Positions 21,169 to 37,739 of a DNA stretch of 64,000 nucleotides are shown here, piece after piece. The stretch covers positions 1 through 64,000 of the IMG/VR virus record IMGVR_UViG_3300046698_000515; one strand, given 5' to 3'. The position numbers and the translations under genes are program-made. This DNA comes from a virus. The notes under the pieces were generated by a model that saw nothing but the letters and a program-made list of their open reading frames with translations, was not told the DNA's origin and did not search any database. How positions within the stretch are numbered: position 1 is the stretch's first letter; each line of letters opens with the position of its first letter.

Positions 21169-23028
21169 ATGATAAAAACAGAAACAATCCCTGTTGATTT
21201 TTCGCAAGAAATTTCAGATTTTGTATTCCATAGTAAATATGCTCGGTACAATGAAACTTACAATAGAAGAGAAACTTGGGATGAATGTGTAAATCGAGTA
21301 ACTCGAATGCATCTCGTAAAATATAAATTTTTACCTCAGGAAGATTTAGATAAAGTAAAATGGGCATTTCAATTAGTAAAAGAGAAAAAGGTTGTCCCAT
21401 CGATGAGGAGCATGCAGTTTGGTGGTAAAGCTGTCGATGTTAAAAATGAAAGGCTTTATAATTGTTCTGTTCGAAATGTTGATAGTATTCGTTCGTTTGC
21501 TGAAATCTTTTTTATGCTTCTTTGTGGAAATGGTGTGGGGATGAATGTTACAGAACAATTTATTAATCGGCTCCCTCTTTTGGTTGATGCATCTGATAAG
21601 ACCGGAACAGTTACAACATATAGTGTGCAAGATAATATTGAAGGTTGGGCTGATAGTGTTGAAGCATTACTTTTATGTTATTTTCGAAATACAGCTTATA
21701 CAGGTAGAAAGATAATTTTTGACTACAGTAAGGTGAGACCAGAAGGTGCACCTGTTAAAACAGGTGGCGGAAAAGCTCCAGGATATAAAGGATTAAAACG
21801 TTCACATAAGAAAATAAAAGAACTTTTAGATCATATAATTGAGGAAGAAGGACAAACACGACTTAAACCTATTAACGCATATGATATCATAATGCATATG
21901 GCAGATGCCACACTTTCCGGAGGTATTAGGCGAAGTGCTTGTAGTATTGTTTTTAATAAACAGGATCAGGAAATGATGACTGCTAAAACATTTTCTGAAG
22001 TTGTAAAACACACTAAGTTTGTTTTTGATGATGATACTAAAAAATGGAACGGTAAAATTACATTAAAAAATAAAAAACGATATGAAGTTGAATTAACTGA
22101 TTTTGAATATAATGATAAAACTAACAAAAATAACTTATTAGATTATAACAGAATTTGCTGGATACATGTCAATCCACAAAGGGCTCGAAGTAATAATAGT
22201 GTTCTTCTTTTACGTAGTGAAGCTAAAAAAGAAGATATTGAAGAGATTGTAAATAATGCAAGAATTTATGGTGAACCTGGGGTAGCTTTTTGTAATGATT
22301 TGCGACAAAATTTTAACCCTTGTTTCGAAATAAATTTTTTGCCGATAACTTCTGATGGTGTATGTGGAGCTCAGTTTTGCAATTTATCAAGTATAAATGG
22401 AGCAAAAATAACATCACAAAAAGATTTTTTACAAGCAACTGAAGCAGCAACTATTATAGGAACTTTGCAAGCTGGTTATACAGATTTTAAATATTTAAGT
22501 CAAGCGGCAAAACAATTAACTGAAGAAGAAGCATTGCTTGGTGTTTCATTAACAGGATGGATGGATAGTCCGGATATTTTATTAAAGCCAGAAAATCAAA
22601 AAGAATCTGCTCAGCATGCCATTAAAACAAATGTTAAATGGGCTAAAAAAATTGGAATTAACCCTGCTGCACGTATTACATGTGTAAAACCAGAGGGTTG
22701 CCTTGTTCCTGAGACAAAAATTAAAACATCATGCGGAAATTTAACTTTAAAAGAAATTTTTGAGATTAATGATTATGATTTTGAACAAGTATTAAAGTAT
22801 AAAGATACCTTTTTACCTGTGAATGAGAAGATATTTATTTATAATAAAAATAATGACTTAGAATTAATAACTCAATTATATATTAATGGAAATTCTGAAA
22901 CAATTAACATTGAACTTGAAGACGGTTCTAATATCTGCTGTACAAAGGATCATCAATTTTTAACACAAAGAGGGTGGGTTAAAGCAAGTGATTTAACAAA
23001 TCAAGATGATATAAAACAAGGTAATTAG
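21169..23028 (+). CDS. nrdJ: class II ribonucleotide reductase N-extein fused to N-intein
   Basis: 619 residues. Residues 1-510 are the main part of an adenosylcobalamin-dependent ribonucleotide reductase: LYNCSVRNV (first redox Cys), NPCFEI (radical-site Cys), FCNLSSIN (second redox Cys) and substrate loops such as GGGKAPGYKG. Length and order match the monomeric NrdJ type, so it makes dNTPs for phage DNA using B12. At Cys 511 (nt 22699) the extein sequence VKPEG is interrupted by an intein N-half of 109 residues: CLVPETKI opens block A and TKDHQFLTQRGWVKASDL is block B with its TxxH motif. The frame stops there. The rest of the protein is in a separate gene at 24241. Confidence 0.92.
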   Translation: MIKTETIPVDFSQEISDFVFHSKYARYNETYNRRETWDECVNRVTRMHLVKYKFLPQEDLDKVKWAFQLVKEKKVVPSMRSMQFGGKAVDVKNERLYNCSVRNVDSIRSFAEIFFMLLCGNGVGMNVTEQFINRLPLLVDASDKTGTVTTYSVQDNIEGWADSVEALLLCYFRNTAYTGRKIIFDYSKVRPEGAPVKTGGGKAPGYKGLKRSHKKIKELLDHIIEEEGQTRLKPINAYDIIMHMADATLSGGIRRSACSIVFNKQDQEMMTAKTFSEVVKHTKFVFDDDTKKWNGKITLKNKKRYEVELTDFEYNDKTNKNNLLDYNRICWIHVNPQRARSNNSVLLLRSEAKKEDIEEIVNNARIYGEPGVAFCNDLRQNFNPCFEINFLPITSDGVCGAQFCNLSSINGAKITSQKDFLQATEAATIIGTLQAGYTDFKYLSQAAKQLTEEEALLGVSLTGWMDSPDILLKPENQKESAQHAIKTNVKWAKKIGINPAARITCVKPEGCLVPETKIKTSCGNLTLKEIFEINDYDFEQVLKYKDTFLPVNEKIFIYNKNNDLELITQLYINGNSETINIELEDGSNICCTKDHQFLTQRGWVKASDLTNQDDIKQGN

Positions 23029-23078
23029 TTGTTACATGCTGGAAACCTACAATAAATAATATAAGTAATTGCGGGCTT

Positions 23079-24272
23079 ATGAAATATTATAATTACTTCC
23101 AATGGATACGAACACGTAAATATCATTTATTAAAATTAATCCTTAAAATTTGTCATGGTAATAAAGCATTAACACAATTAAGAAAATTAACACATACTAA
23201 GAAATATTATATTTTTAGATATGGTGAAAAGTTAGGAACAGAACGGTATGATGAAACGTTAAGAATAACAAAATTAAAAGGAACAAAACAGTTTTATATT
23301 GAAAAATATGGTGAAGATATTGGAATAAAAAAATATCTAGAGAAAAATAAAAAATTAAGTGTTAGTTATAAAGCTTTAAAAAATAATGGTCATACAGATG
23401 AAGAAATAAAACAAATACGTAAAAAACATGCTGATGGATCCAAACACACAAGAGAAACATATATTAAAAAATATGGTGAGAAGGAAGGGCAAGAAAAATA
23501 TAAAATATGGATGACACAACAGCGGGTAAGCGTTCGCTCTGTAAAAGAATTAATTGAGAGAAAGGGGTTAACAAAAGAGCAAGCAGAAATATATGTTAGT
23601 AAGTTACAAACGAGAGATTTAAATTTCTTTATTAAGAAATATGGTATAGAAATAGGTACATTAAAATTTCAACATTGCTGTAATGAGCGTAGATATAAAA
23701 ATTCGTTACAGTTTTATAAAGAAAAATATGGGACAGAGGAAGGTACACGAAAATATAAAGATAGGATAAAAAGACAAACCTCACACCATTCCTTTGAAAG
23801 TTTTATTAAAAGATTTGGTGAAAAAGAAGGTATTATTAAATTTAAAGATTTACAAAAAAGAAAAGCAGAAACACGAATGAGACAATTATCATGTGGATCA
23901 AAAAAACAATTAAATTTCTCAAGGTTACTATATGATAAATTACCACTAGATTTAAAAACACAATATATTGGAACCCCTGTTACAAAAAGCAGAGCTATAT
24001 TCTTTGAAAAGAATGAATGTAGATTAAAATTTTGTGTACCTGATATATTAATTGGTAAATTAATAATAGAATTTGACGGTACATATTGGCATAATAATAG
24101 CTTAGAGGTAATGGAGCGTGATACATTTAAAACAATTTTACTTGTACAAAAAGGATATACCTTAATTAGAGTAAAGGAAAAAGATTATGATAATAATCAA
24201 GAGCAATGTATTATAAATACTCTTAATCAAATTTTATATTATGAAAATCAAAAAAGTAACAAAGGAGAATAA
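23079..24272 (+). CDS. free-standing homing endonuclease inside the split intein
   Basis: 397 residues, lying between the intein halves. Six repeats of the type FYIEKYGEDIGIKKY span residues ~45-255 and probably bind DNA. The C-terminal domain has a Vsr-like nuclease core: LIIEFDGTYWHN (~residues 327-338) followed by ERDTFKTILLVQKGYTLIRVKEKDYD. Such endonucleases are known from fractured phage genes with split inteins. It overlaps the C-intein gene by 32 bp. It would cut intein-less nrdJ alleles and drive spread of the intein. Confidence 0.85.
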   Translation: MKYYNYFQWIRTRKYHLLKLILKICHGNKALTQLRKLTHTKKYYIFRYGEKLGTERYDETLRITKLKGTKQFYIEKYGEDIGIKKYLEKNKKLSVSYKALKNNGHTDEEIKQIRKKHADGSKHTRETYIKKYGEKEGQEKYKIWMTQQRVSVRSVKELIERKGLTKEQAEIYVSKLQTRDLNFFIKKYGIEIGTLKFQHCCNERRYKNSLQFYKEKYGTEEGTRKYKDRIKRQTSHHSFESFIKRFGEKEGIIKFKDLQKRKAETRMRQLSCGSKKQLNFSRLLYDKLPLDLKTQYIGTPVTKSRAIFFEKNECRLKFCVPDILIGKLIIEFDGTYWHNNSLEVMERDTFKTILLVQKGYTLIRVKEKDYDNNQEQCIINTLNQILYYENQKSNKGE

Positions 24273-24954
24273 CAAATTTACGGTAGATATTGAAATTGCA
24301 GATTCACATACATATCAATTAGCAAATGGTTGTATTAGTCATAATACCTCCAGCCTTATTTTAGGCTCTGCTTCAGGCATCCATCCTCACCATGCACGAA
24401 AATATTTTAGACGGATTCAATGTAATAAACACGAGGCAGTATATCAACACTTTAAAGAAAATAATCCTCATACATGTGAACCAAGTATATGGAGTGCTAA
24501 CAAGACAGATGACGTTGTAACTTTTCCAATTACTGTTTCTGATAAAGCAATTATTAAGAGCGATTTATCTGCAATTAAACATCTTGAAATAATTAAATCA
24601 ACACAACAAAATTGGGTAATACCAGGAACTAATACTGAAGTAAATAAAAAACCATTATATCATAATATTAGTGCGACTGTTTTAATAAAAGATGATGAAT
24701 GGAATGATGTAATAAATTATCTTTATGAAAATAGAGAATTTTTTACCGCTGTTTCTCTTTTGCCAGCAATAGGTGATAAGCTTTATAAGCAAGCTCCCTT
24801 AGAAGCTGTTAGTACACCTGAAGACGAAGAAAAGTGGAAGCAAATAGTCACTAATTATAAATCTGTTAATTATAAAGAATTAAAAGAAGATGAAGATGAA
24901 ACTGAATTAATGGCTGCTGCTGCCTGTGCTGGTGGAGCCTGCGAAGTAATTTAG
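24241..24954 (+). CDS. nrdJ: C-intein fused to class II ribonucleotide reductase C-extein
   Basis: 237 residues. Residues 1-35 are the intein C-half, ending in block F/G (DIEIADSHTYQLANGCISHN). Splicing would join the following Thr 36 to the upstream VKPEG. Residues 36-237 complete NrdJ: TSSLILGSASGIHPHHARKY (nucleotide-binding part) and a C-terminal CAGGAC Cys pair that re-reduces the active site. Trans-splicing of this product with 21169-23028 is needed for an active enzyme. Confidence 0.9.
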   Translation: MKIKKVTKENNKFTVDIEIADSHTYQLANGCISHNTSSLILGSASGIHPHHARKYFRRIQCNKHEAVYQHFKENNPHTCEPSIWSANKTDDVVTFPITVSDKAIIKSDLSAIKHLEIIKSTQQNWVIPGTNTEVNKKPLYHNISATVLIKDDEWNDVINYLYENREFFTAVSLLPAIGDKLYKQAPLEAVSTPEDEEKWKQIVTNYKSVNYKELKEDEDETELMAAAACAGGACEVI

Positions 24955-27960: not shown

Positions 27961-28034
27961 GCAGCATTAATTTAGTGGTAAAATTTCTAACTACCAATTA
28001 GAGTTCATCAGTCCAATTCTGATATGCTGCTCCA
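27961..28034 (+). tRNA. tRNA-Gly(ACC)
   Basis: Acceptor GCAGCAT/ATGCTGC, D arm with GG (ATTTAGTGGTAAAAT), anticodon stem TCTAA/TTAGA with loop CTACCAA, T loop TCCAATT, discriminator T, CCA encoded. A genomic ACC anticodon for Gly is uncommon. Confidence 0.8.
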
Positions 28035-28802
28035 ATTTTAAATAGAGCTTGATTTTTAATATAAAGCCTATATAATGTATTTGTAATTAAGATTTACTTA
28101 CGTTTAGTTTTGTCAAAGATGAAATGTAAGTGAAACAGAACCGCGCAATGCGGTTGAGGGGTGGGAAACAGAGAGGCGCAGAAGGAAAGCGGAGAGGTAG
28201 GAGAGGAAAGTAAGTGGTTTGCGGCTTAGGTCGTTTGTTGTTTACCAGACTCGAGGAAAAGTCCTCGCCAAGAAAAAGCCGCGTTAATTTATTCCAGTAT
28301 TAGACCATTAAGGAGATAGGACAGCCTGTAGAGCTGCCGTGCTTTGTGCACCAGGGGGGGGTTCGATATTCCCTCATGCGGGACCATTTTGTGTTATTGA
28401 TTGAGTGTTCATCAAATCAGTTACCTTGACAGGTGTTAACGGTTCAATTCCCTAGCTGCTGGTGCAGGTTAATGTCTGTCAGAAATTTTTAGAGTTGCTT
28501 TTAATCTTAAAAGAAGCTATATTATATTTGTTCTTTGAATTTCTCAGCAGCATTAGTGCTGGTGAGGTTGAGCCTGGAGACGAAAGCATCGTTGATGTAA
28601 CTCTAAGTTTGCTGGTTGGTAAGTTTTCAAAGGTACATCAGGTTGTAACATTAGATAAAAGATGAAAATACCAGCTAAGTACTTGACGTAACGTCAAGCT
28701 TGACGTTTAGGTCGCGTTCAATGCGACCTGTTCGGTTAAGGGTAGGACAAAGGTGCACATAAAACCTACCAATACCTGCAATTTTGAGTTTGTTCTTTGA
28801 AT
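28035..28802 (+). ncRNA. long non-coding structured region, possible giant ncRNA
   Basis: About 770 nt without a convincing gene, more GC-rich than its surroundings. It has a purine-rich block (28150-28210), a tRNA-like 3' part near 28310-28375 (T-arm with TTCGATA, CATGCGGGACCA end, run of eight G), alternating palindromes TTGACGTAACGTCAA/AACGTCAAGCTTGACGTT (28683-28707), a perfect AGGTCGC/GCGACCT hairpin (28709-28729) and a GGTAGG/CCTACC stem. GOLLD-type giant RNAs occur next to phage tRNAs, so that is one candidate; I cannot confirm it. Confidence 0.4.
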
Positions 28803-29209
28803 GGGCCTGAAATGATTCGATTGTTTGTGTTAAGTTAATAATTATATGTCGAAGATGATCCTTGGCTTCGTAAAAAATGGGTCAAAACTAAATGCTAACA
28901 AAATTAGCCAAGCACGTGCATTAGCAACTCTCGCAGTTGATCGCGCATTTGCTCGAGTTCCAGCAATGGCTTAAGGCTGTTGTCTTGAACATTGTTAACC
29001 AGTGTTGCTGTCTGTCATATTGGATTAACATCGTTTACAGACTGGTTACTGTTAGTTGTGCCGAAACAGTAATAAGATTAAGCACAAGATTGTGAGCAGA
29101 GACGTGCTGGTACGGATGTTCATAACGACGTAGTGAAATAACCAGATAAACATATACAAGTTGTTAAAGTGATCAAACAAAACTCGGCTCGATGCCGACA
29201 GGTCCACCA
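28803..29209 (+). ncRNA. ssrA: transfer-messenger RNA (tmRNA)
   Basis: 407 nt, one-piece. The 5' end GGGCCTGAAATGATTCGATT and the 3' end CAGGTCCACCA pair as an acceptor stem (GGGCCTG/CAGGTCC) with CCA encoded; TGATTCGA matches the tmRNA D-loop region and TCGGCTCGATGCCGA is the T arm. CTTCGTAAAAAATGG precedes the tag frame, as in bacterial tmRNAs. The tag probably resumes at GCT 28894, about 92 nt from the 5' end as in E. coli. It runs 26 codons (starts ANKIS, ends RVPAMA) to TAA 28972. This is longer than usual tags (about 10-16 residues), and the AMA end is unlike the common LAA. It would rescue stalled ribosomes. Confidence 0.85.
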
Positions 29210-29216
29210 ATTTTAT

Positions 29217-29393
29217 GCCCGGTTACCTCAGCGGTTGGTAAATTAAGTATCCGAACACTTTGCAAATGTGATACTAGTTAGAGAGTAGCAGAGTTAGTAA
29301 GAGAAAGATTTACTCGAGGCGAAAGTAATTAAATGCGCGCGAGAGGGCCTAGCAATAGCTAGAAAGTTGATAATTCGAGTCCATCACTGGGTA
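29217..29393 (+). tRNA. tRNA-like gene with ~90-nt insertion (degenerate)
   Basis: Ends pair as an acceptor stem (GCCCGGT 29217 with ACTGGGT 29386) and a D arm with GGTTGG is present. The anticodon region contains TTTGCAAA (Cys GCA or Ala TGC) in a poor stem, and the T arm has the loop TTCGAGT but only three of five stem pairs. About 90 nt separate anticodon and T arms. Possibly a disrupted tRNA or an intron-bearing one. Confidence 0.35.
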
Positions 29394-29404
29394 TCCTAAT
29401 TTAT

Positions 29405-29490
29405 ACGTTGGTGGCTCGACAAGTAAGGCAACGGTCTCCAAAACCGTACACGATAATTCGTATATGTAGGTGCAATACCTATCCAACGTG
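29405..29490 (+). tRNA. tRNA-Trp(CCA) with long variable arm
   Basis: Acceptor ACGTTGG/CCAACGT, anticodon stem ACGGT/ACCGT with loop CTCCAAA, T arm GTAGG-TGCAATA-CCTAT. The variable region is 18 nt and can pair (ACGA/TCGT), unlike normal Trp tRNAs. Elbow positions are A18 and G55. Discriminator G as usual for Trp. Confidence 0.75.
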
Positions 29491-29584
29491 CAGAATTTCT
29501 TTTTTGCTTGCTTTTTCTGAAATGTATAATACAATATACAAGTTATCTTTTCAGGCGCTGTGGTTGTTACTATCCAAGAAATGT

Positions 29585-29665
29585 AACTGGTGGAGACGGT
29601 GAACGAAGAACTCGTTCCCTCCCGCAAATGAGTTACAGTTTTCCAAGCTGTGGCTCATTTGTGTT
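29585..29665 (+). ncRNA. two-hairpin small RNA candidate
   Basis: GAACGA/TCGTTC within a GGAG/CTCC stem, followed by a stem CAAATGAG/CTCATTTG (29623-29662) enclosing ACAG/CTGT. No gene here; sits between two tRNAs. Confidence 0.4.
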
Positions 29666-29747
29666 TAAATAATTTGGTCACTACCAGTGGTAGATGGCTC
29701 TAAAAAGGTTCCTCGGTACCAGCCTGGCGAAACCGAGTTAATTTATC

Positions 29748-29824
29748 GGGTTATGTGGCAACAAAGGTGTTGCACTTGCTTTGCACGCAAGTTAAAAGCT
29801 AGGGTGCGTTACCCTCATGATCCA
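29748..29824 (+). tRNA. tRNA-Ala(TGC)
   Basis: Acceptor GGGTTAT/ATGATCC (two wobble pairs), D stem GCAAC/GTTGC, anticodon stem CTTGC/GCAAG with loop TTTGCAC, T loop TGCGTTA. CCA not encoded. Confidence 0.7.
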
Positions 29825-29832
29825 CATTTTAT

Positions 29833-29907
29833 CGCTCAATCGTCTAAAATCTAGGACGCAGTCCCTTGGGACTGAAATGCCAAGGTGAAGTCTGGCGCGA
29901 GCGACCA
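29833..29907 (+). tRNA. tRNA, probable Pro(TGG) or Gln(TTG), degenerate
   Basis: CGCTCAA and GCGAGCG pair in five positions, D stem GTC/GAC, anticodon helix CAGTC/GACTG with a six-base loop CCTTGG, and a weak T arm GCCA/TGGC. ACCA at the 3' end. The loop length leaves the anticodon uncertain. Confidence 0.4.
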
Positions 29908-29942
29908 ATTTATAAAACCATATTGTGATTAAATAATTACAT

Positions 29943-30137
29943 ATGCCTATAATTCCTATTGTTGTTACTCTTATTGTTATCGGAGTTTTGCTCTGGCTTG
30001 CTAACACTTATATCCCTATGGACGAAAAGATTAAGAAAATCTTAAATGCTGTTGTAGTGATATTAGTTGTCGTTTGGTTGCTCGATGTGTTTGGAGCGTT
30101 TAGTTATGTTAATAACATTCAATGGCATCACCGATAA
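29943..30137 (+). CDS. small membrane protein
   Basis: 64 residues with two membrane helices (IIPIVVTLIVIGVLLWLA; ILNAVVVILVVVWLLDVFG) separated by YIPMDEKIKK. This pattern is widespread in small bacterial and phage inner membrane proteins. Lies among tRNA genes. Confidence 0.7.
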   Translation: MPIIPIVVTLIVIGVLLWLANTYIPMDEKIKKILNAVVVILVVVWLLDVFGAFSYVNNIQWHHR

Positions 30138-30145
30138 TTTTTGAG

Positions 30146-30174
30146 TTGCATTTTTTCGTATAAGTATTTAAAAT
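30146..30174 (+). promoter_or_regulatory. sigma70-type promoter
   Basis: TTGCAT at 30146-30151, 17-bp spacer, TAAAAT at 30169-30174, right before the Hsp20 gene. Confidence 0.6.
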
Positions 30175-30180
30175 ATTTGT

Positions 30181-30573
30181 ATGAAAAATATAGCACTTAT
30201 AAAAGCTGATGAGGTGATTGAACCAGAATTAGTTGACGATAATTTTCCTCGTTCTACTCTTTTTGATGATATTGATAAATTTACTCAACGTATATTTCAT
30301 GGATTTAATAGTGGAAGCTGCTTAGAAGAAAAACAAGGTAATTTTATTCTGCAGTTTGAGATTCCTGGTTTTGATGAGAGTGAAATTGACATTACCATAG
30401 AAGGAACAACAATATTTGTTAGAGGTATTTCAAAAAATAAACAAACAGAATTTTCATATCAATTACCTCAACCAGTTGTAATAAGCAAAGCTACTTCAAT
30501 ATTTAAAAATGGTATTTTAACTGTTGTTCTTCCGAAGAGTAAAATTAAGAAGCAGAGAATTTTAATTTCATAA
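30181..30573 (+). CDS. small heat-shock protein (Hsp20/alpha-crystallin)
   Basis: 130 residues. The alpha-crystallin domain is clear: FEIPGFDESEIDITIEGTTI (~residues 58-77), FVRGISKNKQ, and the closing motif ATSIFKNGILTVVLPK (~105-120). Phages of the T4-like group, especially cyanophages, often carry Hsp20. It would hold unfolded proteins during infection or assembly. Own sigma70 promoter, so expressed early. Confidence 0.9.
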   Translation: MKNIALIKADEVIEPELVDDNFPRSTLFDDIDKFTQRIFHGFNSGSCLEEKQGNFILQFEIPGFDESEIDITIEGTTIFVRGISKNKQTEFSYQLPQPVVISKATSIFKNGILTVVLPKSKIKKQRILIS

Positions 30574-30579
30574 TTTATA

Positions 30580-30653
30580 GCTGGCGGGGGGTTAGATCCT
30601 GGACGGGCCCATAACCCGTTTTAATCAGATGCGATTTCTGAGCGTAGCGACCA
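30580..30653 (+). tRNA. tRNA-Met(CAT), C33
   Basis: Anticodon stem ACGGG/CCCGT with loop CCCATAA, so position 33 is C, not U. T arm TCAGA-TGCGATT-TCTGA; CCA encoded. The acceptor stem pairs poorly (about four pairs), so the exact ends are unsure. Elbow is A18/G55. Confidence 0.65.
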
Positions 30654-30657
30654 TTTA

Positions 30658-30732
30658 TCAGGTACGTAGTGTAATTAGTAGCATTTTACCTTGTGACGGT
30701 AACGGTTCTGATGCGAATTCAGACTACCTGAA
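30658..30732 (+). tRNA. tRNA-His(GTG)
   Basis: Acceptor TCAGGTA/TACCTGA, anticodon stem TTACC/GGTAA with loop TTGTGAC, T arm TCTGA-TGCGAAT-TCAGA. D loop TTAG (A18) with T loop G55. CCA not encoded. Confidence 0.8.
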
Positions 30733-30905
30733 GATTCTTCTTGCAAATTACATTATCATTTAATAGAATTTTACTCACAGCGGGCCTAGGAAATTATCCA
30801 TGGAATAATTATACCACACGCTGATCTGTTCAGGAATGACCGGTGAGAGAATAGGTGCATGGTTGACAATTGATGTCAATAATTCCAGCTTAAACTCTGA
30901 GTACA

Positions 30906-31013
30906 TCAGTAGCACATGAGCAAATTGTTTCGGTAGAAGTCCGACTATCCTTGAAACGTGAAGGAATGCAAGAATAAAAAGCCTTGACCTCGAATGTGCT
31001 ACTGAGAATTTTT
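30906..31013 (+). ncRNA. small RNA closed by a 12-bp stem
   Basis: TCAGTAGCACAT (30906-30917) is perfectly complementary to ATGTGCTACTGA (30994-31005), followed by GAATTTTT. The 76 nt between carry a CCTT/AAGG hairpin. Candidate ncRNA with its own terminator; class unknown. Confidence 0.45.
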
Positions 31014-31016
31014 AAT

Positions 31017-31102
31017 GGTAGTGTGGCCGAAAAGGAAACTGGAAGAACTAACTAGCTTAGAACTAGATGGCCTTGGAAGTTCGACTCTTCTCACTGCTAC
31101 CA
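31017..31102 (+). tRNA. tRNA-Leu(TAG)
   Basis: Acceptor GGTAGTG/CACTGCT, anticodon helix CTAG/CTAG with loop CTTAGAA, T arm GGAAG-TTCGACT-CTTCT, discriminator A, CCA encoded. GG in the D loop and T55: the standard elbow. Confidence 0.75.
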
Positions 31103-31258
31103 TTTTACTACATTAGTAAATGTAGACCGCGGCAGGTGGTAGATACTTATCTAGAGGATACCTAACTTAGTGCACATAATTATAGCTTGATCGAGTTGCG
31201 CGAGCAATGCTAAACAGCTGGTACTTCCGAATATGTCGAAATGCTATCTGTAATTTAT

Positions 31259-31340
31259 GCTACAGTGTACGAAACCAGAATAGAAGATGGATAAATTTCA
31301 AAAATTTATGTACTTGAAGGTGCAAGTCCTTTCTGTAGTA
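31259..31340 (+). tRNA. tRNA-Leu(CAA), overlapped by homing endonuclease
   Basis: Acceptor GCTACAG/CTGTAGT, anticodon stem TAAAT/ATTTA with loop TTCAAAA, T arm GAAGG-TGCAAGT-CCTTT. The last 35 nt are antisense to the end of the endonuclease gene 31306-32013. A18/G55 elbow; no encoded CCA. Confidence 0.7.
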
Positions 31341-32013
31341 GTAATTTTTGATCAATGATAGAAATGATAATATCTAAATATTTTTGACCGGTTGTTGGTT
31401 TAAAATATAGTTGGTGGGAAGTATCAATAATTACCAATTCAATTTCTCTTTCTAAACATGCTTGAAATTTCCTATTGTCATTATTTTGAATTTTTGAGAG
31501 TAATTCTTTTCCATGAATAGGTTCATAATGGTAAATACCATTTAATTCTACTGCTAATTTTAGAGATGGAATATAAATATCAAGTTCTGAATTTATTGCT
31601 TCCTTTTTATTGAACAGATTTTCTAATTTTGGATATTTTTGAATTAATTGTTGTTCTATCCATTTTTCTAATTTAGATCGTCTTGTACCATGCTTTTTAT
31701 GGGTATTATTATATGTTGCAGCACATGATTGTGTACAAAACATATTAGTTGTCTTTTTATGTTTATTACGGGTTGCTGAAGCAACCACTTTAAAGAGTAC
31801 ATTACAATTTTTACATATACAAGATACTTGTGTTATTCTTGATTTATGCGCACATTTTCCACTACAATATATAACATTTCTATTATTTCTTTTTGCTAAA
31901 TAAATAGCATGTTTTGTTGTTTGAAAGGTTTTATTGCAGTGTGGGCAAATAGTATCTATAATTTTTTCATGATGTTTTGCAGATTTATATTGCGTTTTAT
32001 TATATTTAACCAT
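31306..32013 (-). CDS. zinc-finger homing endonuclease overlapping a tRNA
   Basis: 235 residues. Three Cys fingers (CPHC, CSGKC, CKNC/CTQSC) cover residues ~20-100. The C-terminal nuclease has the pattern LEKWIEQQL...SELDIYIPSLKLAVELNGIYHY, a Vsr/EDxHD-like core. The last ~11 codons are antisense to the 3' half of tRNA-Leu(CAA). It has a late-type TTAAATAATT box just upstream of the start. Probably targets tRNA-gene DNA, as T4 SegB does in its tRNA cluster (inference). Confidence 0.8.
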   Translation of the reverse strand: MVKYNKTQYKSAKHHEKIIDTICPHCNKTFQTTKHAIYLAKRNNRNVIYCSGKCAHKSRITQVSCICKNCNVLFKVVASATRNKHKKTTNMFCTQSCAATYNNTHKKHGTRRSKLEKWIEQQLIQKYPKLENLFNKKEAINSELDIYIPSLKLAVELNGIYHYEPIHGKELLSKIQNNDNRKFQACLEREIELVIIDTSHQLYFKPTTGQKYLDIIISIIDQKLLLQKGLAPSST

Positions 32014-32066
32014 ACAATTATTTAATCGAAAATAGGATTTCGAATCCGGTTTAGATAACCTATTTC

Positions 32067-32142
32067 GGGCTTGTAGACCAATAGAAGAGTCAACGGTCCT
32101 AAAAACCGTACAGTGCGGGGGCAGGACCCGCCAGGCCTACCA
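32067..32142 (+). tRNA. tRNA-Leu(TAA), C33, short variable loop
   Basis: Acceptor GGGCTTG/CAGGCCT, D stem GAC/GTC, anticodon stem ACGGT/ACCGT with loop CCTAAAA (C33), T arm GCGGG-GGCAGGA-CCCGC, CCA encoded. The variable loop is only about five bases, unlike a normal Leu tRNA. A18/G55 elbow. Confidence 0.75.
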
Positions 32143-32152
32143 TTTTAAAATT

Positions 32153-32329
32153 ATGAGCATAAGAACTAAAAATGATACACATCACGGATGTAAACCCGAT
32201 GACTGTCATTGTGAAGAACACTGCAATGATAAGCCTTTAAGATCTCTTTTAGAACTGTTTCTCATTGTAGGAAATATGACCCTTTGGTTCTATAATATTT
32301 TAGCTCTTGTAAATGTAATGAAACATTAA
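32153..32329 (+). CDS. small membrane protein with Cys/His cluster
   Basis: 58 residues. HHGCKPDDCHCEEHCND (residues 10-26) followed by a membrane helix (LFLIVGNMTLWFYNILALV). Ends at the base before the next gene. Unknown. Confidence 0.55.
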   Translation: MSIRTKNDTHHGCKPDDCHCEEHCNDKPLRSLLELFLIVGNMTLWFYNILALVNVMKH

Positions 32330-32473
32330 ATGAAAAAGAAAACTAAATGGCCAACTTTAAAAGGTAGATTATCTCAACCATTAACTACTCGAAAAGAGGC
32401 AGTAGAGCAATTGCAAAAGTTTGGTATGCCTTTAACAGAGCTAGCAAAGAAATATTTAAAAAATGAAAAATAG
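32330..32473 (+). CDS. small hypothetical protein
   Basis: 47 residues (MKKKTKWPTLKGRLSQPL...). Directly abuts the upstream stop and overlaps the next gene by 11 bp, which supports coding. Confidence 0.55.
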   Translation: MKKKTKWPTLKGRLSQPLTTRKEAVEQLQKFGMPLTELAKKYLKNEK

Positions 32474-32627
32474 TCTCCGTAAAGACGCAATAACTAAAGG
32501 TGGTTGGGGTCGAGGAATGAATAATAAATTATCACGTACTTCTAAACATAATCTTGATCGTAAAGTAGATAAGCGCAGACGGAGAGAAGGAAAAGAATTT
32601 AATGACCCTATCGACTACGTTAGCTAG
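32463..32627 (+). CDS. small basic protein running into tRNA-Glu
   Basis: 54 residues (MKNSLRKDAITKGGWGRGMN...). Basic C-terminus KVDKRRRREGKEF. Its last eight codons lie within the 5' part of tRNA-Glu(TTC). The opening resembles a small conserved phage family. Confidence 0.6.
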   Translation: MKNSLRKDAITKGGWGRGMNNKLSRTSKHNLDRKVDKRRRREGKEFNDPIDYVS

Positions 32628-32680
32628 GTCGGAAGACCTTCAATCTTCAGGAGCGAGGGCAGCACTCGCTAGGGTCACCA
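32604..32680 (+). tRNA. tRNA-Glu(TTC), C33
   Basis: Acceptor GACCCTA/TAGGGTC, anticodon stem GAAGA/TCTTC with loop CCTTCAA (C33), T arm GCGAG-GGCAGCA-CTCGC, CCA encoded. D loop TTAG: A18 with G55. Confidence 0.85.
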
Positions 32681-32688
32681 ATTTATAA

Positions 32689-32764
32689 CCTCGTGAAGAT
32701 GAAGAGTGGAATCACAGGCTTGTCACGCCTGAATAAGCAGGCGCACCTCCTGTCGCGAGGACCA
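32689..32764 (+). tRNA. tRNA-Asp(GTC)
   Basis: Acceptor CCTCGTG/CGCGAGG, D stem GAT/ATC, anticodon stem CAGGC/GCCTG with loop TTGTCAC, T arm GCAGG-CGCACCT-CCTGT, CCA encoded. Confidence 0.85.
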
Positions 32765-32781
32765 ATTTCTGACAATGTATA

Positions 32782-32852
32782 GGTAACAATCGTCTAATGG
32801 CAGGATGCCGGCGCGAAGGTCGGAGATATTGGTTCAAGTCCAGATGCTACCA
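32782..32852 (+). tRNA. tRNA, anticodon uncertain (GAA, CGA or GCG)
   Basis: Acceptor GGTAACA/TGCTACC, anticodon helix CCGGC/GTCGG around a six-base loop GCGAAG, T loop TTCAAGT. The short loop prevents a sure assignment. Confidence 0.5.
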
Positions 32853-32943
32853 ACGTGATGTATATTGTTGTGAAAATGAGTCTGTATAGTTTAGTGCATT
32901 TCACAGTGTGCTCCGCCATTGGGCTCATATTGAAGTAGTTAGT

Positions 32944-33017
32944 AAGGATTATGGTGCAATGGTCAGACACAGCGGCTCCCAAGTCGCTTGTCCAAGTTCG
33001 AGTCTTGGTAATTTTTG
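32944..33017 (+). tRNA. tRNA-Gly(CCC)
   Basis: Acceptor AAGGATT/AATTTTT (two G-U pairs), D arm with GG, anticodon helix AGCGGC/GTCGCT around TCCCAA, T arm CCAAG-TTCGAGT-CTTGG. The loop is one base short, otherwise Gly-like. Confidence 0.6.
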
Positions 33018-33038
33018 CTAACTACGGATTTTATTTTT

Positions 33039-33113
33039 GCGGTATAGGTGTTTATAGATACATACGAGACTTCCAATCTTGGGTAGAGGGTGTGATACCC
33101 TCACACCGCTCCA
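33039..33113 (+). tRNA. tRNA-Gly(TCC)
   Basis: Acceptor GCGGTAT/ACACCGC, anticodon stem CGAGA/TCTTG with loop CTTCCAA, T arm GAGGG-TGTGATA-CCCTC, discriminator T, CCA encoded. Elbow A18/G55. Confidence 0.8.
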
Positions 33114-33121
33114 ATTTTAGA

Positions 33122-33128
33122 ATAAATA
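33122..33128 (+). promoter_or_regulatory. T4-type late promoter
   Basis: ATAAATA, eight bases before ATG 33137. Confidence 0.5.
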
Positions 33129-33136
33129 ATAGTGTG

Positions 33137-33424
33137 ATGCCATTTAAAATTTTTTACGAAAAAATTGAATCTTGTGCTATTAAATTAGAAGATGGAAGAA
33201 TCTTTACAGGATCAGATCATGAAAGTGCAGCTGCGGAAGCTCATACAGCAGGAGTTCAATGGACTGATATTGAAAAATGTATTTGTGGTTTTATGATAGA
33301 TGGAGAATTTTTTAATAGAGAACAAGCTTTTAATATTGCAATTTCAAATGGTATTCTTTGTTTGAAACAACCATGTACTCCAGGTAGATTAGATTCTTAC
33401 GATTTACCACACTTACATCCGTAA
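33137..33424 (+). CDS. hypothetical protein
   Basis: 95 residues. ATG 33137 was chosen because the upstream open frame is tRNA sequence. Starts MPFKIFYEKIESCAIKLEDG, with a GRIFTGSDHESAAAEAH segment. Not recognised. Confidence 0.65.
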   Translation: MPFKIFYEKIESCAIKLEDGRIFTGSDHESAAAEAHTAGVQWTDIEKCICGFMIDGEFFNREQAFNIAISNGILCLKQPCTPGRLDSYDLPHLHP

Positions 33425-33432
33425 GCATAATA

Positions 33433-33460
33433 TTGATTTTCATATTTTGTTTGTTATTAT
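33433..33460 (+). promoter_or_regulatory. sigma70-type promoter
   Basis: TTGATT at 33433-33438, 16-bp spacer, TATTAT at 33455-33460. The string TAAGCATAATATTGATTT here recurs at 33624-33641. Confidence 0.65.
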
Positions 33461-33469
33461 TTCTTTACT

Positions 33470-33625
33470 ATGAAAGTAAATGCTAAAGCTGATTTAACTG
33501 GTAATCTTGTTGTAATTAATGATAATTGGTATTATCTTTGTAAGATTGATGAACCTAAACATTTATCTACTAAACCATTAGTTAATTTTACTATACAGGG
33601 TACTTTTACAAAAGCTAAAAGATAA
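33470..33625 (+). CDS. small hypothetical protein
   Basis: 51 residues, beta-rich (NLVVINDNWYYLCKIDEPK). Own promoter; a second promoter of the same sequence follows for the next gene. Confidence 0.6.
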   Translation: MKVNAKADLTGNLVVINDNWYYLCKIDEPKHLSTKPLVNFTIQGTFTKAKR

Positions 33626-33670
33626 GCATAATATTGATTTCAATAAACTAGTTATTATCATGTCTAAGTT

Positions 33671-33880
33671 ATGGAAAATATAAACTTAAATATAGTTAAA
33701 GGTACACTTAACAAATTAAGTGTACTTCTTGATACACAAATTGAAAAGTATACTGCAGCAAAAAAGCCTACAAATGTAGATTTTGAAAGAATTCATAAAA
33801 CACTTTCTATATATGAATCAGTTGTAGATATATATGGGAATCTTATTGGTATTGATAAAATGGGTAAGGAAGAATTGTAA
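33671..33880 (+). CDS. small helical protein
   Basis: 69 residues, amphipathic helices (LNIVKGTLNKLSVLLDTQIEK). Ends 8 bp before tRNA-Thr. Unknown. Confidence 0.6.
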   Translation: MENINLNIVKGTLNKLSVLLDTQIEKYTAAKKPTNVDFERIHKTLSIYESVVDIYGNLIGIDKMGKEEL

Positions 33881-33887
33881 TTTATTT

Positions 33888-33978
33888 GCCTGTTTGGCTC
33901 AGCGGCGACAGCACCATCTTTGTAAGTTGGCAGCTTTTTAATAAGCTCACGGGAGTTCAAATCTCTCAACAGGCTCCA
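33888..33978 (+). tRNA. tRNA-Thr(TGT) with long variable arm
   Basis: Acceptor GCCTGTT/AACAGGC, anticodon helix CCATC/GTTGG (one mismatch) with loop TTTGTAA, T arm GGGAG-TTCAAAT-CTCTC, discriminator T, CCA. The variable arm is 20 nt with an AGCTT/AAGCT stem, normally seen only in Leu, Ser and Tyr tRNAs. Confidence 0.8.
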
Positions 33979-33986
33979 AATTTATT

Positions 33987-34074
33987 GCCAGTATGCCTCA
34001 GTAGCGACAGGACCTGTTTCGTAAACAGATAACATTTAAAAGTGTTCACGGAAGTGTAAATCTTTCTACTGGCT
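33987..34074 (+). tRNA. tRNA-Thr(CGT) with long variable arm
   Basis: Acceptor GCCAGTA/TACTGGC, anticodon stem pairing CTGT/ACAG with loop TTCGTAA, T arm GGAAG-TGTAAAT-CTTTC. Variable arm of 20 nt with AACA/TGTT. Its 3' end is antisense to the endonuclease gene 34046-35020. Confidence 0.75.
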
Positions 34075-35020
34075 CCGCTTCTATAAGTTGTTTAATACTT
34101 TCCCATGATAACTCATTTTTATTAAGAATTAAAAGTTTTTGAGAAATTAGTTTTTTAACTTTTTGTATTTTTTCTGCATCTGTTTGTTGGCAAAAATTAT
34201 TTTTAGGATCAAGATATGTATTATAATCTGTTAAATAAAAATCAGGATAATATTTCTTATCAATTCCGAGATTGTTTACCCATGGTATTGGTGAGGGTCT
34301 TATCCATTTAATTTTGTTTTCGTCAAGTGATTGTGCAACTTTAAATTCCCAACTTGACTCCAACCATACCTTACCAGCAAATGGTGAAGTATAGTAACCT
34401 GTTTTATGGTAATGGTTTTTATTTATACATAAGTAAGTTTTACCAATATTTACACGAACTAAATGCAGACATTTACCGCAATACTTTCTTTTATGTCTAT
34501 GTATGAATTTAATAATTGTACCACATCCACCTTTACATAATTTTGGTTGTTTATTATATTCATTTAGTATAGTTTGTTTTCTAATCGCAGCATATTTTTG
34601 TAATTTAAGAAGTTTTTGTTTCTCCTTCTCTGGTGATAATTTTCCTGAGTATCCATTTTTATTTCGTTCTTTATTACTAAATGTTGCTGAGCATGTATGT
34701 GAACAAAAATTATGCTGTCGGATCGCATTAAGACACTTTCTAACTGATTTTTTACAAGTTGTACAAAAAATTGTTCTTGTAGTAGATGGATAAGTATATA
34801 ATTTTCCACATTTACTAGAACAAAAAATAGCAGTTGTATTTTTACTTTCTTTATTTCGTTGCTTCTTTCGTCTTACTGAGCCAAGAATATTATATTTCTT
34901 TCTAGTTTGTATTTTATTACATTGTTTACATTTAAAAGGAATATTATCATTCCATTTTGAGTTAACAAATGTTTCTTTATCAATTAATAAACAATCTAGT
35001 AGTTCTTTAGGTAAATCCAT
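34046..35020 (-). CDS. zinc-finger homing endonuclease overlapping a tRNA
   Basis: 324 residues. Multiple Cys fingers over residues 1-190 (CKQC, CSSKC, CTTC, CKGGC, CGKC). The C-terminal nuclease (residues ~215-300) has WLESSWEFKVAQSL, KKYYPDFYLTDY and TYLDPKN, a PD-(D/E)xK or Vsr-like arrangement. Last ~10 codons are antisense to the 3' end of tRNA-Thr(CGT). An AAATAATT late-type box precedes the start. Same architecture as 31306-32013. Confidence 0.8.
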   Translation of the reverse strand: MDLPKELLDCLLIDKETFVNSKWNDNIPFKCKQCNKIQTRKKYNILGSVRRKKQRNKESKNTTAIFCSSKCGKLYTYPSTTRTIFCTTCKKSVRKCLNAIRQHNFCSHTCSATFSNKERNKNGYSGKLSPEKEKQKLLKLQKYAAIRKQTILNEYNKQPKLCKGGCGTIIKFIHRHKRKYCGKCLHLVRVNIGKTYLCINKNHYHKTGYYTSPFAGKVWLESSWEFKVAQSLDENKIKWIRPSPIPWVNNLGIDKKYYPDFYLTDYNTYLDPKNNFCQQTDAEKIQKVKKLISQKLLILNKNELSWESIKQLIEAEPVERFTLP

Positions 35021-35062
35021 ATATTAATTATTTAATGAAACATAGTCGCAATAACAAGGTGC

Positions 35063-35143
35063 GGCTCCTATAATAAAATTTGATACGGCTTCCTTAATCA
35101 AGAAGGTGGAAATAAAGCCGGAATGAGCGTACACTCCTGAGCC
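35063..35143 (+). tRNA. degenerate tRNA-like sequence
   Basis: GGCTC/GAGCC ends pair in five positions and an anticodon-like helix CTTC/GAAG encloses TTAATC. D and T arms are poor. May be a tRNA remnant. Confidence 0.25.
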
Positions 35144-35157
35144 CTCAAATAAATTTT

Positions 35158-35230
35158 GCCTCTGTAATTCAAAGATAGAATATTGCTTTGGTAAAGCAAA
35201 AACGTTTGGGATTGTTACCCACCTGAGGCT
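35158..35230 (+). tRNA. tRNA-Thr(GGT)
   Basis: Acceptor GCCTCTG/CTGAGGC (one mismatch), D stem ATTC/GAAT, anticodon stem TTGCT/AGCAA with loop TTGGTAA, T stem TGGG/CCCA. Short variable loop, unlike the other two Thr tRNAs. Confidence 0.7.
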
Positions 35231-35239
35231 CACTTTAAT

Positions 35240-35330
35240 GGCTAGTAAACTTAACAAGGTTAAGGGTTGTCTGCTAAACAACGCGCTCACCTAAGACGTG
35301 GGTCAGAGGCAGGATCTGTGCTAGCCGCCA
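35240..35330 (+). tRNA. tRNA-Ser(GCT)
   Basis: Acceptor GGCTAGT/GCTAGCC, anticodon stem GTTGT/ACAAC with loop CTGCTAA, long variable arm as expected for Ser, T loop GGCAGGA, discriminator G, CCA encoded. Confidence 0.85.
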
Positions 35331-35337
35331 TTTTTTA

Positions 35338-35365
35338 TTGAAATAAAAACATATTCTAATATAAT
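35338..35365 (+). promoter_or_regulatory. sigma70-type promoter
   Basis: TTGAAA at 35338-35343, 16-bp spacer, TATAAT at 35360-35365, seven bases before ATG 35372. Confidence 0.65.
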
Positions 35366-35371
35366 GTATCC

Positions 35372-35914
35372 ATGTTAGCATTTCATGGAACATCAATTCA
35401 AAATGCAGAATCTATTTGGAAAAATGGATTTGATATTAATGCTCCAAAAAATTGGCAATTGTCACCTAGTAATAAAATATTTTGCCTTTTAGATACAGGT
35501 GGTTCAGAATCTTTCCAATATACTTTAACACAAGCTACTCTTTCAGCTTTTCGTGAGATTGATATTGTAAAACGTGCTGTTATTGTTATTGATATTACTG
35601 GAATAAAATATGCTCCTGATTCAACAAATACTATGCCAAAACATATGACCTCGATTGAAATGAAGCATATTCCACATAATAGGGTAAAAGCAGTTTTTGC
35701 TGATGTAAATAATTTAGTCCAATATAAGTTATTATTTTACTTTCAAGTTGTTAGTAAAAATTTAAAAACAACGCTTAATATTAGTTTAACGGAAGATGAA
35801 ATTAAAGAGACATCATGTAAAATGGAAACAGGCCAATGTATTTTTACAGATATTGAAAAGATTTATAGTAGAAATATTTTTTATAAATTACCGCAAGCCA
35901 AATATTATTTATAA
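35372..35914 (+). CDS. ADP-ribosyltransferase-like protein
   Basis: 180 residues. It opens with LAFHGTSIQNAESIWKNGFD, the HGT-x-n-I-x-x-GF pattern of PARP/ART and RNA 2'-phosphotransferase folds, followed by SNKIFCLLD and an AVIVIDI strand. A catalytic Glu cannot be fixed by eye. T4-like phages carry ARTs (Alt, ModA) that alter host proteins early; the sigma70 promoter here fits early expression. Assignment is moderate. Confidence 0.55.
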   Translation: MLAFHGTSIQNAESIWKNGFDINAPKNWQLSPSNKIFCLLDTGGSESFQYTLTQATLSAFREIDIVKRAVIVIDITGIKYAPDSTNTMPKHMTSIEMKHIPHNRVKAVFADVNNLVQYKLLFYFQVVSKNLKTTLNISLTEDEIKETSCKMETGQCIFTDIEKIYSRNIFYKLPQAKYYL

Positions 35915-35923
35915 ACAAATTTT

Positions 35924-36011
35924 GGAGGTAGTCCGGCATGGACGAGGACGCGATCCTGAAAATCGTCGCTGGTAAAAACAGTCGGGAGTTCGATTCTCTC
36001 TGCCTCCGCCA
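35924..36011 (+). tRNA. tRNA-Ser(TGA), C33
   Basis: Acceptor GGAGGTA/TGCCTCC, anticodon stem GCGAT/ATCGT with loop CCTGAAA (C33), variable arm CGCTG/CAGTC region, T arm GGGAG-TTCGATT-CTCTC, discriminator G, CCA encoded. Confidence 0.85.
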
Positions 36012-36057
36012 ATTTTACTTGATTATAATGAAATGTATTATATCATATTTTCTGAAC

Positions 36058-36146
36058 TGCAGGGACAAGCCGTGTGATGCTAACTGCGCTCATAACGCAG
36101 GAGATTAATTTCTCTATGAATAGTTAGACTCTATTCTCTGCAACCA
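36058..36146 (+). tRNA. tRNA-Met(CAT) with long variable arm
   Basis: Acceptor TGCAGGG/CTCTGCA, anticodon stem CTGCG/CGCAG with loop CTCATAA, variable arm GAGA/TCTC, T arm AATAG-TTAGACT-CTATT, discriminator A, CCA encoded. CAT could also be Ile(ATA) if modified. Confidence 0.8.
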
Positions 36147-36152
36147 ATTTCT

Positions 36153-36244
36153 GGACCTATGATGTAATGTAGCATTGCTAGTTTTATAAACTAGGCGCAG
36201 TAGATTTCTGCCAAGTTTTGGTTCAAGTCCAAATGGGTCTACCA
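36153..36244 (+). tRNA. tRNA-Ile(TAT) with long variable arm
   Basis: Acceptor GGACCTA/TGGGTCT, anticodon stem CTAGT/ACTAG with loop TTTATAA, variable arm GCAG/CTGC, T arm TTTGG-TTCAAGT-CCAAA, discriminator A, CCA. TAT anticodon reads ATA directly. Confidence 0.8.
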
Positions 36245-36252
36245 ATTTTCAT

Positions 36253-36330
36253 CCCACAGTAATTCATTATTAGTAGAATATCGTCCTGATAAGGCGAAAG
36301 TGATTGGGGCAGAGCCAATCTGTGGGACCA
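36253..36330 (+). tRNA. tRNA-Ile(GAT)
   Basis: Acceptor CCCACAG/CTGTGGG, D stem ATTC/GAAT, anticodon stem TCGTC/GGCGA with loop CTGATAA, T arm ATTGG-GGCAGAG-CCAAT, CCA encoded. A18/G55 elbow; short variable loop. Confidence 0.85.
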
Positions 36331-36340
36331 ATTTTTGTTC

Positions 36341-36369
36341 TTGCAATTAATCTTGTTTGTGCTTATTAT
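36341..36369 (+). promoter_or_regulatory. sigma70-type promoter
   Basis: TTGCAA at 36341-36346, 17-bp spacer, TATTAT at 36364-36369, before ATG 36376. Confidence 0.65.
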
Positions 36370-36375
36370 ATTGAC

Positions 36376-36612
36376 ATGAAAAATTTCTTTATCTGTGGCC
36401 GTAAAAATTTTAAAGGTTATGAAGTAGCCTTAAGTGGCAACAACGTAATCATTTGGATTACTGGTGAAGAATCTCCTGAACGAGTCAAAGAAATAACCAC
36501 CGCAGTTTTACTCTATCTCGAAAATGAAGGATTTGGAGATTTAAGCCGAATGAAAGTTCGGGTAGAGCTGAAAGAGTTTGGCGAGAGTGGGGGTATTTTA
36601 GTTCCTGCATAA
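36376..36612 (+). CDS. small hypothetical protein
   Basis: 78 residues from ATG 36376; the longer frame would be tRNA. Alpha/beta with NNVIIWITGEESPERVKE near residue 22. Unknown. Confidence 0.65.
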   Translation: MKNFFICGRKNFKGYEVALSGNNVIIWITGEESPERVKEITTAVLLYLENEGFGDLSRMKVRVELKEFGESGGILVPA

Positions 36613-36623
36613 TAATTTCAAAT

Positions 36624-36697
36624 GGGCTGCAAGCTTTAAATTGAAGCAAAAAGCTTTTAACTTTTTGAACTTGGGGAAGTACCAAGGCGGCTCACCA
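36624..36697 (+). tRNA. tRNA-Lys(TTT)
   Basis: Acceptor GGGCTGC/GCGGCTC, D stem GCTT/AAGC, anticodon stem AAAAG/CTTTT with loop CTTTTAA, T arm CTTGG-GGAAGTA-CCAAG, CCA encoded. Confidence 0.85.
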
Positions 36698-36709
36698 TTC
36701 CATTTTTAT

Positions 36710-36783
36710 TCCAGAGTAGCTCAACTGGTAGTAGCAGATCATTGTTAATGATCAGATTGCTGGATCGTACCCAGCCTCTGGAG
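36710..36783 (+). tRNA. tRNA-Asn(GTT)
   Basis: Acceptor TCCAGAG/CTCTGGA, anticodon stem GATCA/TGATC with loop TTGTTAA, T arm GCTGG-ATCGTAC-CCAGC. D loop has GG with T55; CCA not encoded. Confidence 0.85.
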
Positions 36784-36784
36784 C

Positions 36785-36858
36785 GGACCACAAGTATTAA
36801 AGTGATACAGCAGACTCTTAACCTGCAAAACACGGGGTAGTACCGTGGTGGTTCACCA
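36785..36858 (+). tRNA. tRNA-Lys(CTT)
   Basis: Acceptor GGACCAC/GTGGTTC, D stem GTAT/ATAC, anticodon stem GCAG/CTGC with loop CTCTTAA, T arm CACGG-GGTAGTA-CCGTG, CCA encoded. Starts one base after the previous tRNA. Confidence 0.85.
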
Positions 36859-36864
36859 AATTTA

Positions 36865-36933
36865 CCTGCATAGTATAAAAGTATTACCAACGGTTTTGGC
36901 CCGTAAGAAGTAGGGGCAGTACCTACTGCAGGC
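36865..36933 (+). tRNA. tRNA-Gln(TTG)
   Basis: CCTGCA/TGCAGG acceptor (six pairs), anticodon helix ACGG/CCGT with loop TTTTGGC, T arm GTAGG-GGCAGTA-CCTAC. Pro(TGG) is a less likely reading. Confidence 0.65.
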
Positions 36934-36945
36934 GCGTTTTCTTAA

Positions 36946-37018: not shown

Positions 37019-37073
37019 CTAATTTTATCAGAAATCATTTGCATTTTATATTAGGTAATAAGAAAATGAAAAT

Positions 37074-37352: not shown

Positions 37353-37354
37353 AT

Positions 37355-37573: not shown

Positions 37574-37579
37574 TTTAAT

Positions 37580-37653: not shown

Positions 37654-37659
37654 TTTTAA

Positions 37660-37735: not shown

Positions 37736-37739
37736 TTTT

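What the first reader, a model, noticed from the sequence alone, without database searches (positions are those of the whole stretch)
28803..29209. Phage tmRNA with an unusually long proteolysis tag
Acceptor stem with encoded CCA, tmRNA D-loop and T arm, and a tag frame that resumes at the usual distance from the 5' end. The tag frame has 26 codons and ends AMA, where common tags have ~10-16 residues and end LAA. It may direct stalled products to a different protease or protect phage translation.
Basis: partly seen in the sequence, partly recalled or inferred. Interest (0 to 1): 0.75.

Follow-up and report, generated by a model that had tools for sequence, protein, structure and literature searches.

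The report
Phage tmRNA with a 26-residue tag
A phage genome fragment carries its own copy of tmRNA, the bacterial RNA that frees stuck ribosomes and tags their unfinished proteins; its tag is longer than most but within the known range, so it is a new example of something already known in phages.

Summary
ARAGORN at default settings misses it, but at a lowered threshold returns the same ends and the same tag, ANKISQARALATLAVDRAFARVPAMA (26 codons, 28894-28971). The tag stop codon lies in the apical loop of hairpin H5, its canonical place. The acceptor stem is perfect, with the G3-U70 alanine determinant and encoded CCA; pseudoknot 1 is intact.

The tag is long but not unprecedented. A review gives 8-35 residues. 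Mycobacteriophage ET08 (Bxz1 species) has 25 residues ending ALV, and a 215-kb viral contig has 23 ending AVA. Nothing found supports a different protease. The record encodes no SmpB, ClpP or ClpX-type C-terminal domain, but it is a fragment.

Most likely: a phage-encoded one-piece tmRNA that uses host AlaRS, SmpB and proteases. Caveat: its elbow is diverged (four-pair T stem, CUCGA T loop), which probably explains ARAGORN's miss. Many neighbouring tRNAs share unorthodox elbows yet keep intact stems. That odd tRNA array, 27.9-39.7 kb, is more interesting than the tag. New member of a known kind.

The parts
28803..29209 (+). tmRNA gene (ssrA), one-piece, with encoded CCA
   Evidence: Rfam RF00023 84.2 bits, E 3.3e-31, full model; ARAGORN at lowered threshold gives the same ends
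28803..28809 (+). acceptor stem, 5' strand GGGCCUG; pairs 7/7 with 29199-29205, includes G3-U70
   Evidence: pairing listed
28813..28820 (+). D-loop motif UGAUUCGA (most sampled viral tmRNAs have GG or AG before NUUCGA)
28850..28883 (+). pseudoknot 1: CGAAG/CUUCG (28850-28854 with 28866-28870) and GAUCC/GGGUC (28857-28861 with 28879-28883)
   Evidence: sequence, read by eye; GAUCC/GGGUC stem also in the cmscan alignment
28894..28971 (+). tag reading frame, 26 codons, ANKISQARALATLAVDRAFARVPAMA; resume codon GCU at RNA nucleotide 92
   Evidence: resume codon aligned to the consensus
28957..28990 (+). helix 5 hairpin with the tag stop codon UAA (28972-28974) as its apical loop
   Evidence: fold; consensus alignment
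29184..29198 (+). shortened T arm: UCGG / loop CUCGAUG / CCGA (four pairs)
   Evidence: alignment (7 residues where the model has 9) and sequence
29199..29209 (+). acceptor stem 3' strand CAGGUCC followed by ACCA

Best explanation
This is a phage-encoded, one-piece tmRNA lying in a large phage tRNA array. During infection it is charged with alanine by the host alanyl-tRNA synthetase (G3-U70), binds host SmpB, enters ribosomes stalled on broken or nuclease-cut mRNAs, switches them to the GCU resume codon at 28894, and adds Ala plus 26 residues before ending at the UAA in the H5 loop. The ribosome is freed for phage translation, and the tagged fragment, which still ends in small hydrophobic residues with a terminal alanine, goes to the host's ordinary tail-specific proteases (ClpXP type). 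Shown here: the gene, its structure and its tag frame. Inferred from known tmRNA biology: charging, SmpB use, rescue and proteolysis.
For: Full-length Rfam match far above threshold. Same ends and same tag from ARAGORN at lowered threshold. Perfect acceptor stem with G3-U70 and ACCA. Resume context UAAAU|GCU at nucleotide 92, matching the Rfam consensus UAAuU|GCa. Stop codon in the H5 apical loop. Tag region 49% G+C against 32% for the window, and 9 of 26 residues are alanine. Phage tmRNAs are established: 402 of 18,146 phage genomes (PMC9004378), listed phages in PMC4131195, and re-found here in ET08 and phage G. Comparable long phage tags exist.
Against: The elbow is diverged: T stem of four pairs, loop CUCGAUG where every one-piece tmRNA sampled has UUCRA, and U in place of the first A/G of the D-loop motif. 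It could charge or bind SmpB poorly, or be decaying. No conserved homologue of the tag was found, so selection on the peptide is untested. SmpB is not on the 73.6-kb record.
Confidence: 0.78

Rival explanations
1. It is a decaying or inactive tmRNA copy, or a titrating decoy, that no longer rescues ribosomes; the long frame is just whatever happened to stay open between PK1 and H5.
For: Short T arm, altered T-loop and D-loop residues; an open frame of this length arises in 19% of shuffles; a tRNA-like-domain-only tmRNA is known in phage DS6A (PMC4131195).
Against: Acceptor stem, PK1, the long P2 duplex, H5 and PK2-PK4 helices still pair; the stop sits exactly in the H5 loop; neighbouring tRNAs with unorthodox T loops keep fully paired stems, so an odd elbow here does not imply decay.
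Confidence: 0.17
2. The long, AMA-ending tag is an adaptation: it steers tagged products to a different protease, or stabilises them, and so favours the phage.
For: Diverged phage tags lacking LAA recur: ALV (ET08), AVA (L053), QVA (phage G), AMA here.
Against: No ClpP or ClpB_D2-small domain on the record; the four diverged tags show no evident sequence similarity; tags in the literature span 8-35 residues; no conservation data.
Confidence: 0.1
3. The tag is really of normal length, with the resume codon elsewhere or a shorter frame used.
For: None found.
Against: Rfam and ARAGORN both place the resume codon at 28894; the other two frames hit stops within the tag; the UAA in the H5 loop is the first in-frame stop.
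Confidence: 0.02

Closest known systems
tmRNA (ssrA), Rfam RF00023, one-piece type
   Same: Full model match, acceptor stem with G3-U70 and CCA, D-loop UUCGA, PK1, resume codon at nucleotide 92 in the consensus context, stop in H5, PK2-PK4 helices.
   Different: Four-pair T stem with loop CUCGAUG; U at the first position of the usual GG/AG D-loop motif; 26-codon tag.
tmRNA of Mycobacterium phage ET08 (Bixzunavirus Bxz1), tag ATDTDATVTDAEIEAFFAEEAAALV
   Same: Phage-encoded, one-piece, inside a tRNA array, 25-residue tag not ending LAA.
   Different: Unrelated tag sequence, acidic tag, canonical T loop.
tmRNA of IMG/VR contigs L053/L070/L080 (L053 contig 214,733 bases), tag ANLNRLANLDFSFSVNEVEVAVA
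   Same: Viral contig, one-piece, 23-residue tag ending AVA.
   Different: Canonical UUCAA T loop; unrelated tag.
Bacillus phage G tmRNA, tag AKLNITNNELQVA
   Same: Large-phage tmRNA in a tRNA array, non-LAA ending.
   Different: 13-residue tag.
Melnitz-type marine phage tmRNAs (PMC9004378)
   Same: Complete phage-encoded ssrA.
   Different: Two-piece (permuted), riboswitch-linked; ours is one-piece.

Membership tests
tmRNA (RF00023) | Covariance-model score above the curated threshold | tested here: met
   84.2 bits against 47, positions 1-374
tmRNA (RF00023) | tRNA-like acceptor stem with G3-U70 and CCA end | tested here: met
   7/7 pairs, G3-U70, ACCA
tmRNA (RF00023) | Canonical D-loop/T-loop elbow (GG/AG before NUUCGA; five-pair T stem with UUCRA loop) | tested here: inconclusive
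   UGAUUCGA keeps the second G and UUCGA; T stem has four pairs with loop CUCGAUG; sampled one-piece viral tmRNAs all have UUCRA
tmRNA (RF00023) | PK1 upstream of the resume codon | tested here: met
   CGAAG/CUUCG and GAUCC/GGGUC
tmRNA (RF00023) | Resume codon near nucleotide 90 in consensus context, tag frame ending in H5 | tested here: met
   GCU at nucleotide 92, UAA is the H5 apical loop
tmRNA (RF00023) | Charging with alanine, SmpB binding, tagging of stalled chains | not testable with these tools
   No SmpB on the 73.6-kb record; host unknown
Two-piece (permuted) tmRNA | Permuted order of tRNA-like halves | tested here: not met
   5' and 3' acceptor strands are at the two ends of one 407-nt gene; permuted ARAGORN candidates appear only at lowered threshold
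Selected, conserved tag peptide | Conservation of the tag in related tmRNAs | tested here: inconclusive
   No close homologue found

The most novel reading that the evidence does not exclude
The phage carries a coordinated translation kit (tmRNA plus about 20 tRNA-like genes) whose elbow nucleotides have changed together: T loops such as GGNAG or AUCGU instead of UUCRA, D loops lacking GG, and a four-pair T arm in the tmRNA. This would let these RNAs work on ribosomes while escaping host enzymes or defence nucleases that recognise the canonical elbow, with the tmRNA rescuing ribosomes stalled on mRNAs cut during defence.
Probability: 0.12. Interest if true: 0.8.

Novelty: new member of a known kind. 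Interest (0 to 1): 0.3.

Why it matters
It adds a well-supported phage tmRNA, missed by default ARAGORN, with one of the longer tags seen in phages. It suggests that default searches undercount tmRNAs (and tRNAs) with diverged elbows in phages. Diverged phage tags that lose LAA (ALV, AVA, QVA, AMA) would make it testable whether phages tune the fate of tagged proteins.

Tried and rejected
DNA and translated searches for the tmRNA or its tag among 50,697 phage records gave nothing. Pattern scans of viral contigs for near relatives found only other short-tag tmRNAs or nothing. Records related through the DpdA-like protein mostly lack a tmRNA; G009 has one with an 8-residue tag AAPVAQAA, G010 a 117-base tRNA-like match only. 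The one contig with 85% identity to the 1352-aa protein, L159, carries no tmRNA and aligns with the window at DNA level only in that repetitive protein. A repeated TTTGTTCTTTGAAT just upstream of the tmRNA and at 28527 has two exact copies only, and its looser matches are no more than chance. Promoter and terminator scans were uninformative. Record NC_004687 and several other mycobacteriophage accessions were not held; ET08 was used instead.

Full report
Check of the observation. ARAGORN with default settings finds ten tRNAs in the window but no tmRNA. With its threshold lowered, its output includes a one-piece tmRNA candidate at the same two ends with tag frame 92-172 and peptide ANKISQARALATLAVDRAFARVPAMA*, among six other low-threshold candidates, two of which carry the same tag. 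The window is the first 64,000 bases of a 73,565-base linear IMG/VR virus record, and it holds phage-type genes: a clamp loader, endonuclease VII/dCMP deaminase, a baseplate OB-fold protein and a class II ribonucleotide reductase.

Anatomy. The acceptor stem pairs 7/7 (GGGCCUG/CAGGUCC), with G3-U70, the known alanine identity element, followed by ACCA. UUCGA of the D loop is present. Pseudoknot 1 can be read directly: CGAAG/CUUCG and GAUCC/GGGUC. The resume codon GCU lies at nucleotide 92, in the context UAAAU|GCU against the Rfam consensus UAAuU|GCa. The frame has 26 sense codons, and its UAA (28972-28974) forms the apical loop of the predicted H5 hairpin, the canonical place. The other two frames carry stops within the tag stretch. 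An open frame of this length is not in itself improbable (19% of shuffles); the evidence for the frame is the alignment and the stop position.

Departures. The T arm is short: UCGG, loop CUCGAUG, CCGA (four pairs). The Rfam alignment shows seven residues where the model has nine. All sampled one-piece viral tmRNAs have a UUCRA T loop, and most have GG or AG before NUUCGA in the D loop where this one has UG. This probably explains why ARAGORN misses it, and it leaves open a decayed or weak tmRNA.

How unusual is the tag? A review gives 8-35 residues for tmRNA tags (PMC8012679). In a pattern-based sample of viral contigs, plus a few named or related records, 40 distinct ARAGORN tags were mostly 8-16 residues. 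The longer ones are a real 23-mer, ANLNRLANLDFSFSVNEVEVAVA; ET08's real 25-mer, ATDTDATVTDAEIEAFFAEEAAALV; an 18-residue call that is a 10-residue tag with extra codons in front; and a doubtful 26-residue call in L032 beside that locus's normal tmRNA. The pattern biases this sample, so it is a rough yardstick. Twenty-six residues is thus at the long end for phages but not a new category. The C-terminus AMA was not in the sample; LAA, MAA, QAA, AVA, QVA and ALV were. Phage tmRNAs are well documented: 402 of 18,146 phage genomes (PMC9004378), an earlier list (PMC4131195), and huge phages (PMC7162821).

Mechanism. The best-supported account is ordinary trans-translation with host partners: host AlaRS, host SmpB (no SmpB on this record) and host proteases (no ClpP and no ClpB_D2-small domain on this record; the record is a fragment). 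The benefit to the phage would be ribosome supply when mRNAs are cut late in infection or by defence nucleases; this is inference. The peptide keeps an alanine-rich, small-hydrophobic C-terminus with a terminal alanine; from general knowledge of ssrA-tag variants such as LVA and AAV, this probably still allows ClpXP recognition, but it was not tested. A special protease or protective role has no positive evidence.

Surroundings. The tmRNA sits in an array of tRNA-like genes from 27961 to 39707, with an Hsp20-like gene at 30181-30573. Rfam finds 14 tRNA matches above its gathering score there, and weaker ones. A stem-based scan finds further cloverleaves, mostly with fully paired stems and CCA ends, that neither Rfam nor ARAGORN listed, for example 36624-36697 (UUU), 36785-36858 (CUU), 36253-36330 (GAU) and 32689-32764 (GUC). 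A stricter scan gives ten hits in the window, all on the + strand of this array, and eight of the ten T loops lack UYCRA. The same scan on 1.27 Mb of other loci gives 79 of 89 hits with canonical T loops. Some share GGNAG T loops with D loops lacking GG. tRNAs lacking these motifs are known elsewhere, such as tRNA-Pyl and mitochondrial tRNAs (PMC7609411); the word phage does not occur in that review. The tmRNA's odd elbow therefore matches a habit of the whole array rather than a lone defect.

Relatives. The DpdA-like protein at 46611-47426 is 46% identical to the DNA guanine transglycosylase of Flavobacterium phage immuto and about 41% identical to proteins of CP220-like Campylobacter phages; the immuto and CP220 records have no tmRNA match. 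Host unknown.

Verdict. Real tmRNA, observation confirmed, new member of a known kind; interest 0.3. The elbow-variant tRNA array deserves its own study.

Noticed in passing
window 27961-39707 (+): Large tRNA array in which many structurally intact tRNAs have non-canonical T loops (GGCAGAG, GGAAGUA, GGUAGUA, GGCAGCA, AUCGUAC, AUCGUUA, UGCGAUA, CGCACCU) and often D loops without GG; several are missed by ARAGORN and Rfam (control).
   Followed up: partly
window 29405-29491, 33888-33978, 33987-34076, 36153-36244: tRNAs with long variable arms but anticodons CCA (Trp), UGU and CGU (Thr) and UAU (Ile), instead of the Leu/Ser/Tyr anticodons expected for class II tRNAs. Identity unclear; possible miscoding or unusual serine-type tRNAs.
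   Followed up: no
window 46611-50171 and 11414-12271: Probable 7-deazaguanine DNA modification genes: DpdA-like protein, GTP cyclohydrolase-type (FolE/QueF-like) protein and a radical SAM protein that may be QueE.
   Followed up: partly
window 21169-24954: B12-type ribonucleotide reductase split by an intein-like segment; the ORF between the two halves ends in a DUF559/MTES_1575 endonuclease-like domain.
   Followed up: no
window 30181-30573: Hsp20/alpha-crystallin-like chaperone gene about 1 kb downstream of the tmRNA.
   Followed up: no
L016 (G010:C1:68422-68538, -): A related viral contig has a 117-base match to the two ends of the tmRNA model without most of the middle (30.8 bits, below threshold), possibly a tRNA-like-domain-only tmRNA as reported for phage DS6A, or a tRNA.
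   Followed up: no
L053, L070, L080 (L053 contig 214,733 bases): Three viral contigs share a tmRNA with a 23-residue tag ending AVA and two stop codons in a row.
   Followed up: partly
window 54190-58248: 1352-aa protein with repetitive segments (about 63-base periodicity suggested by overlapping alignments with L159), similar to pieces of large-phage proteins.
   Followed up: no
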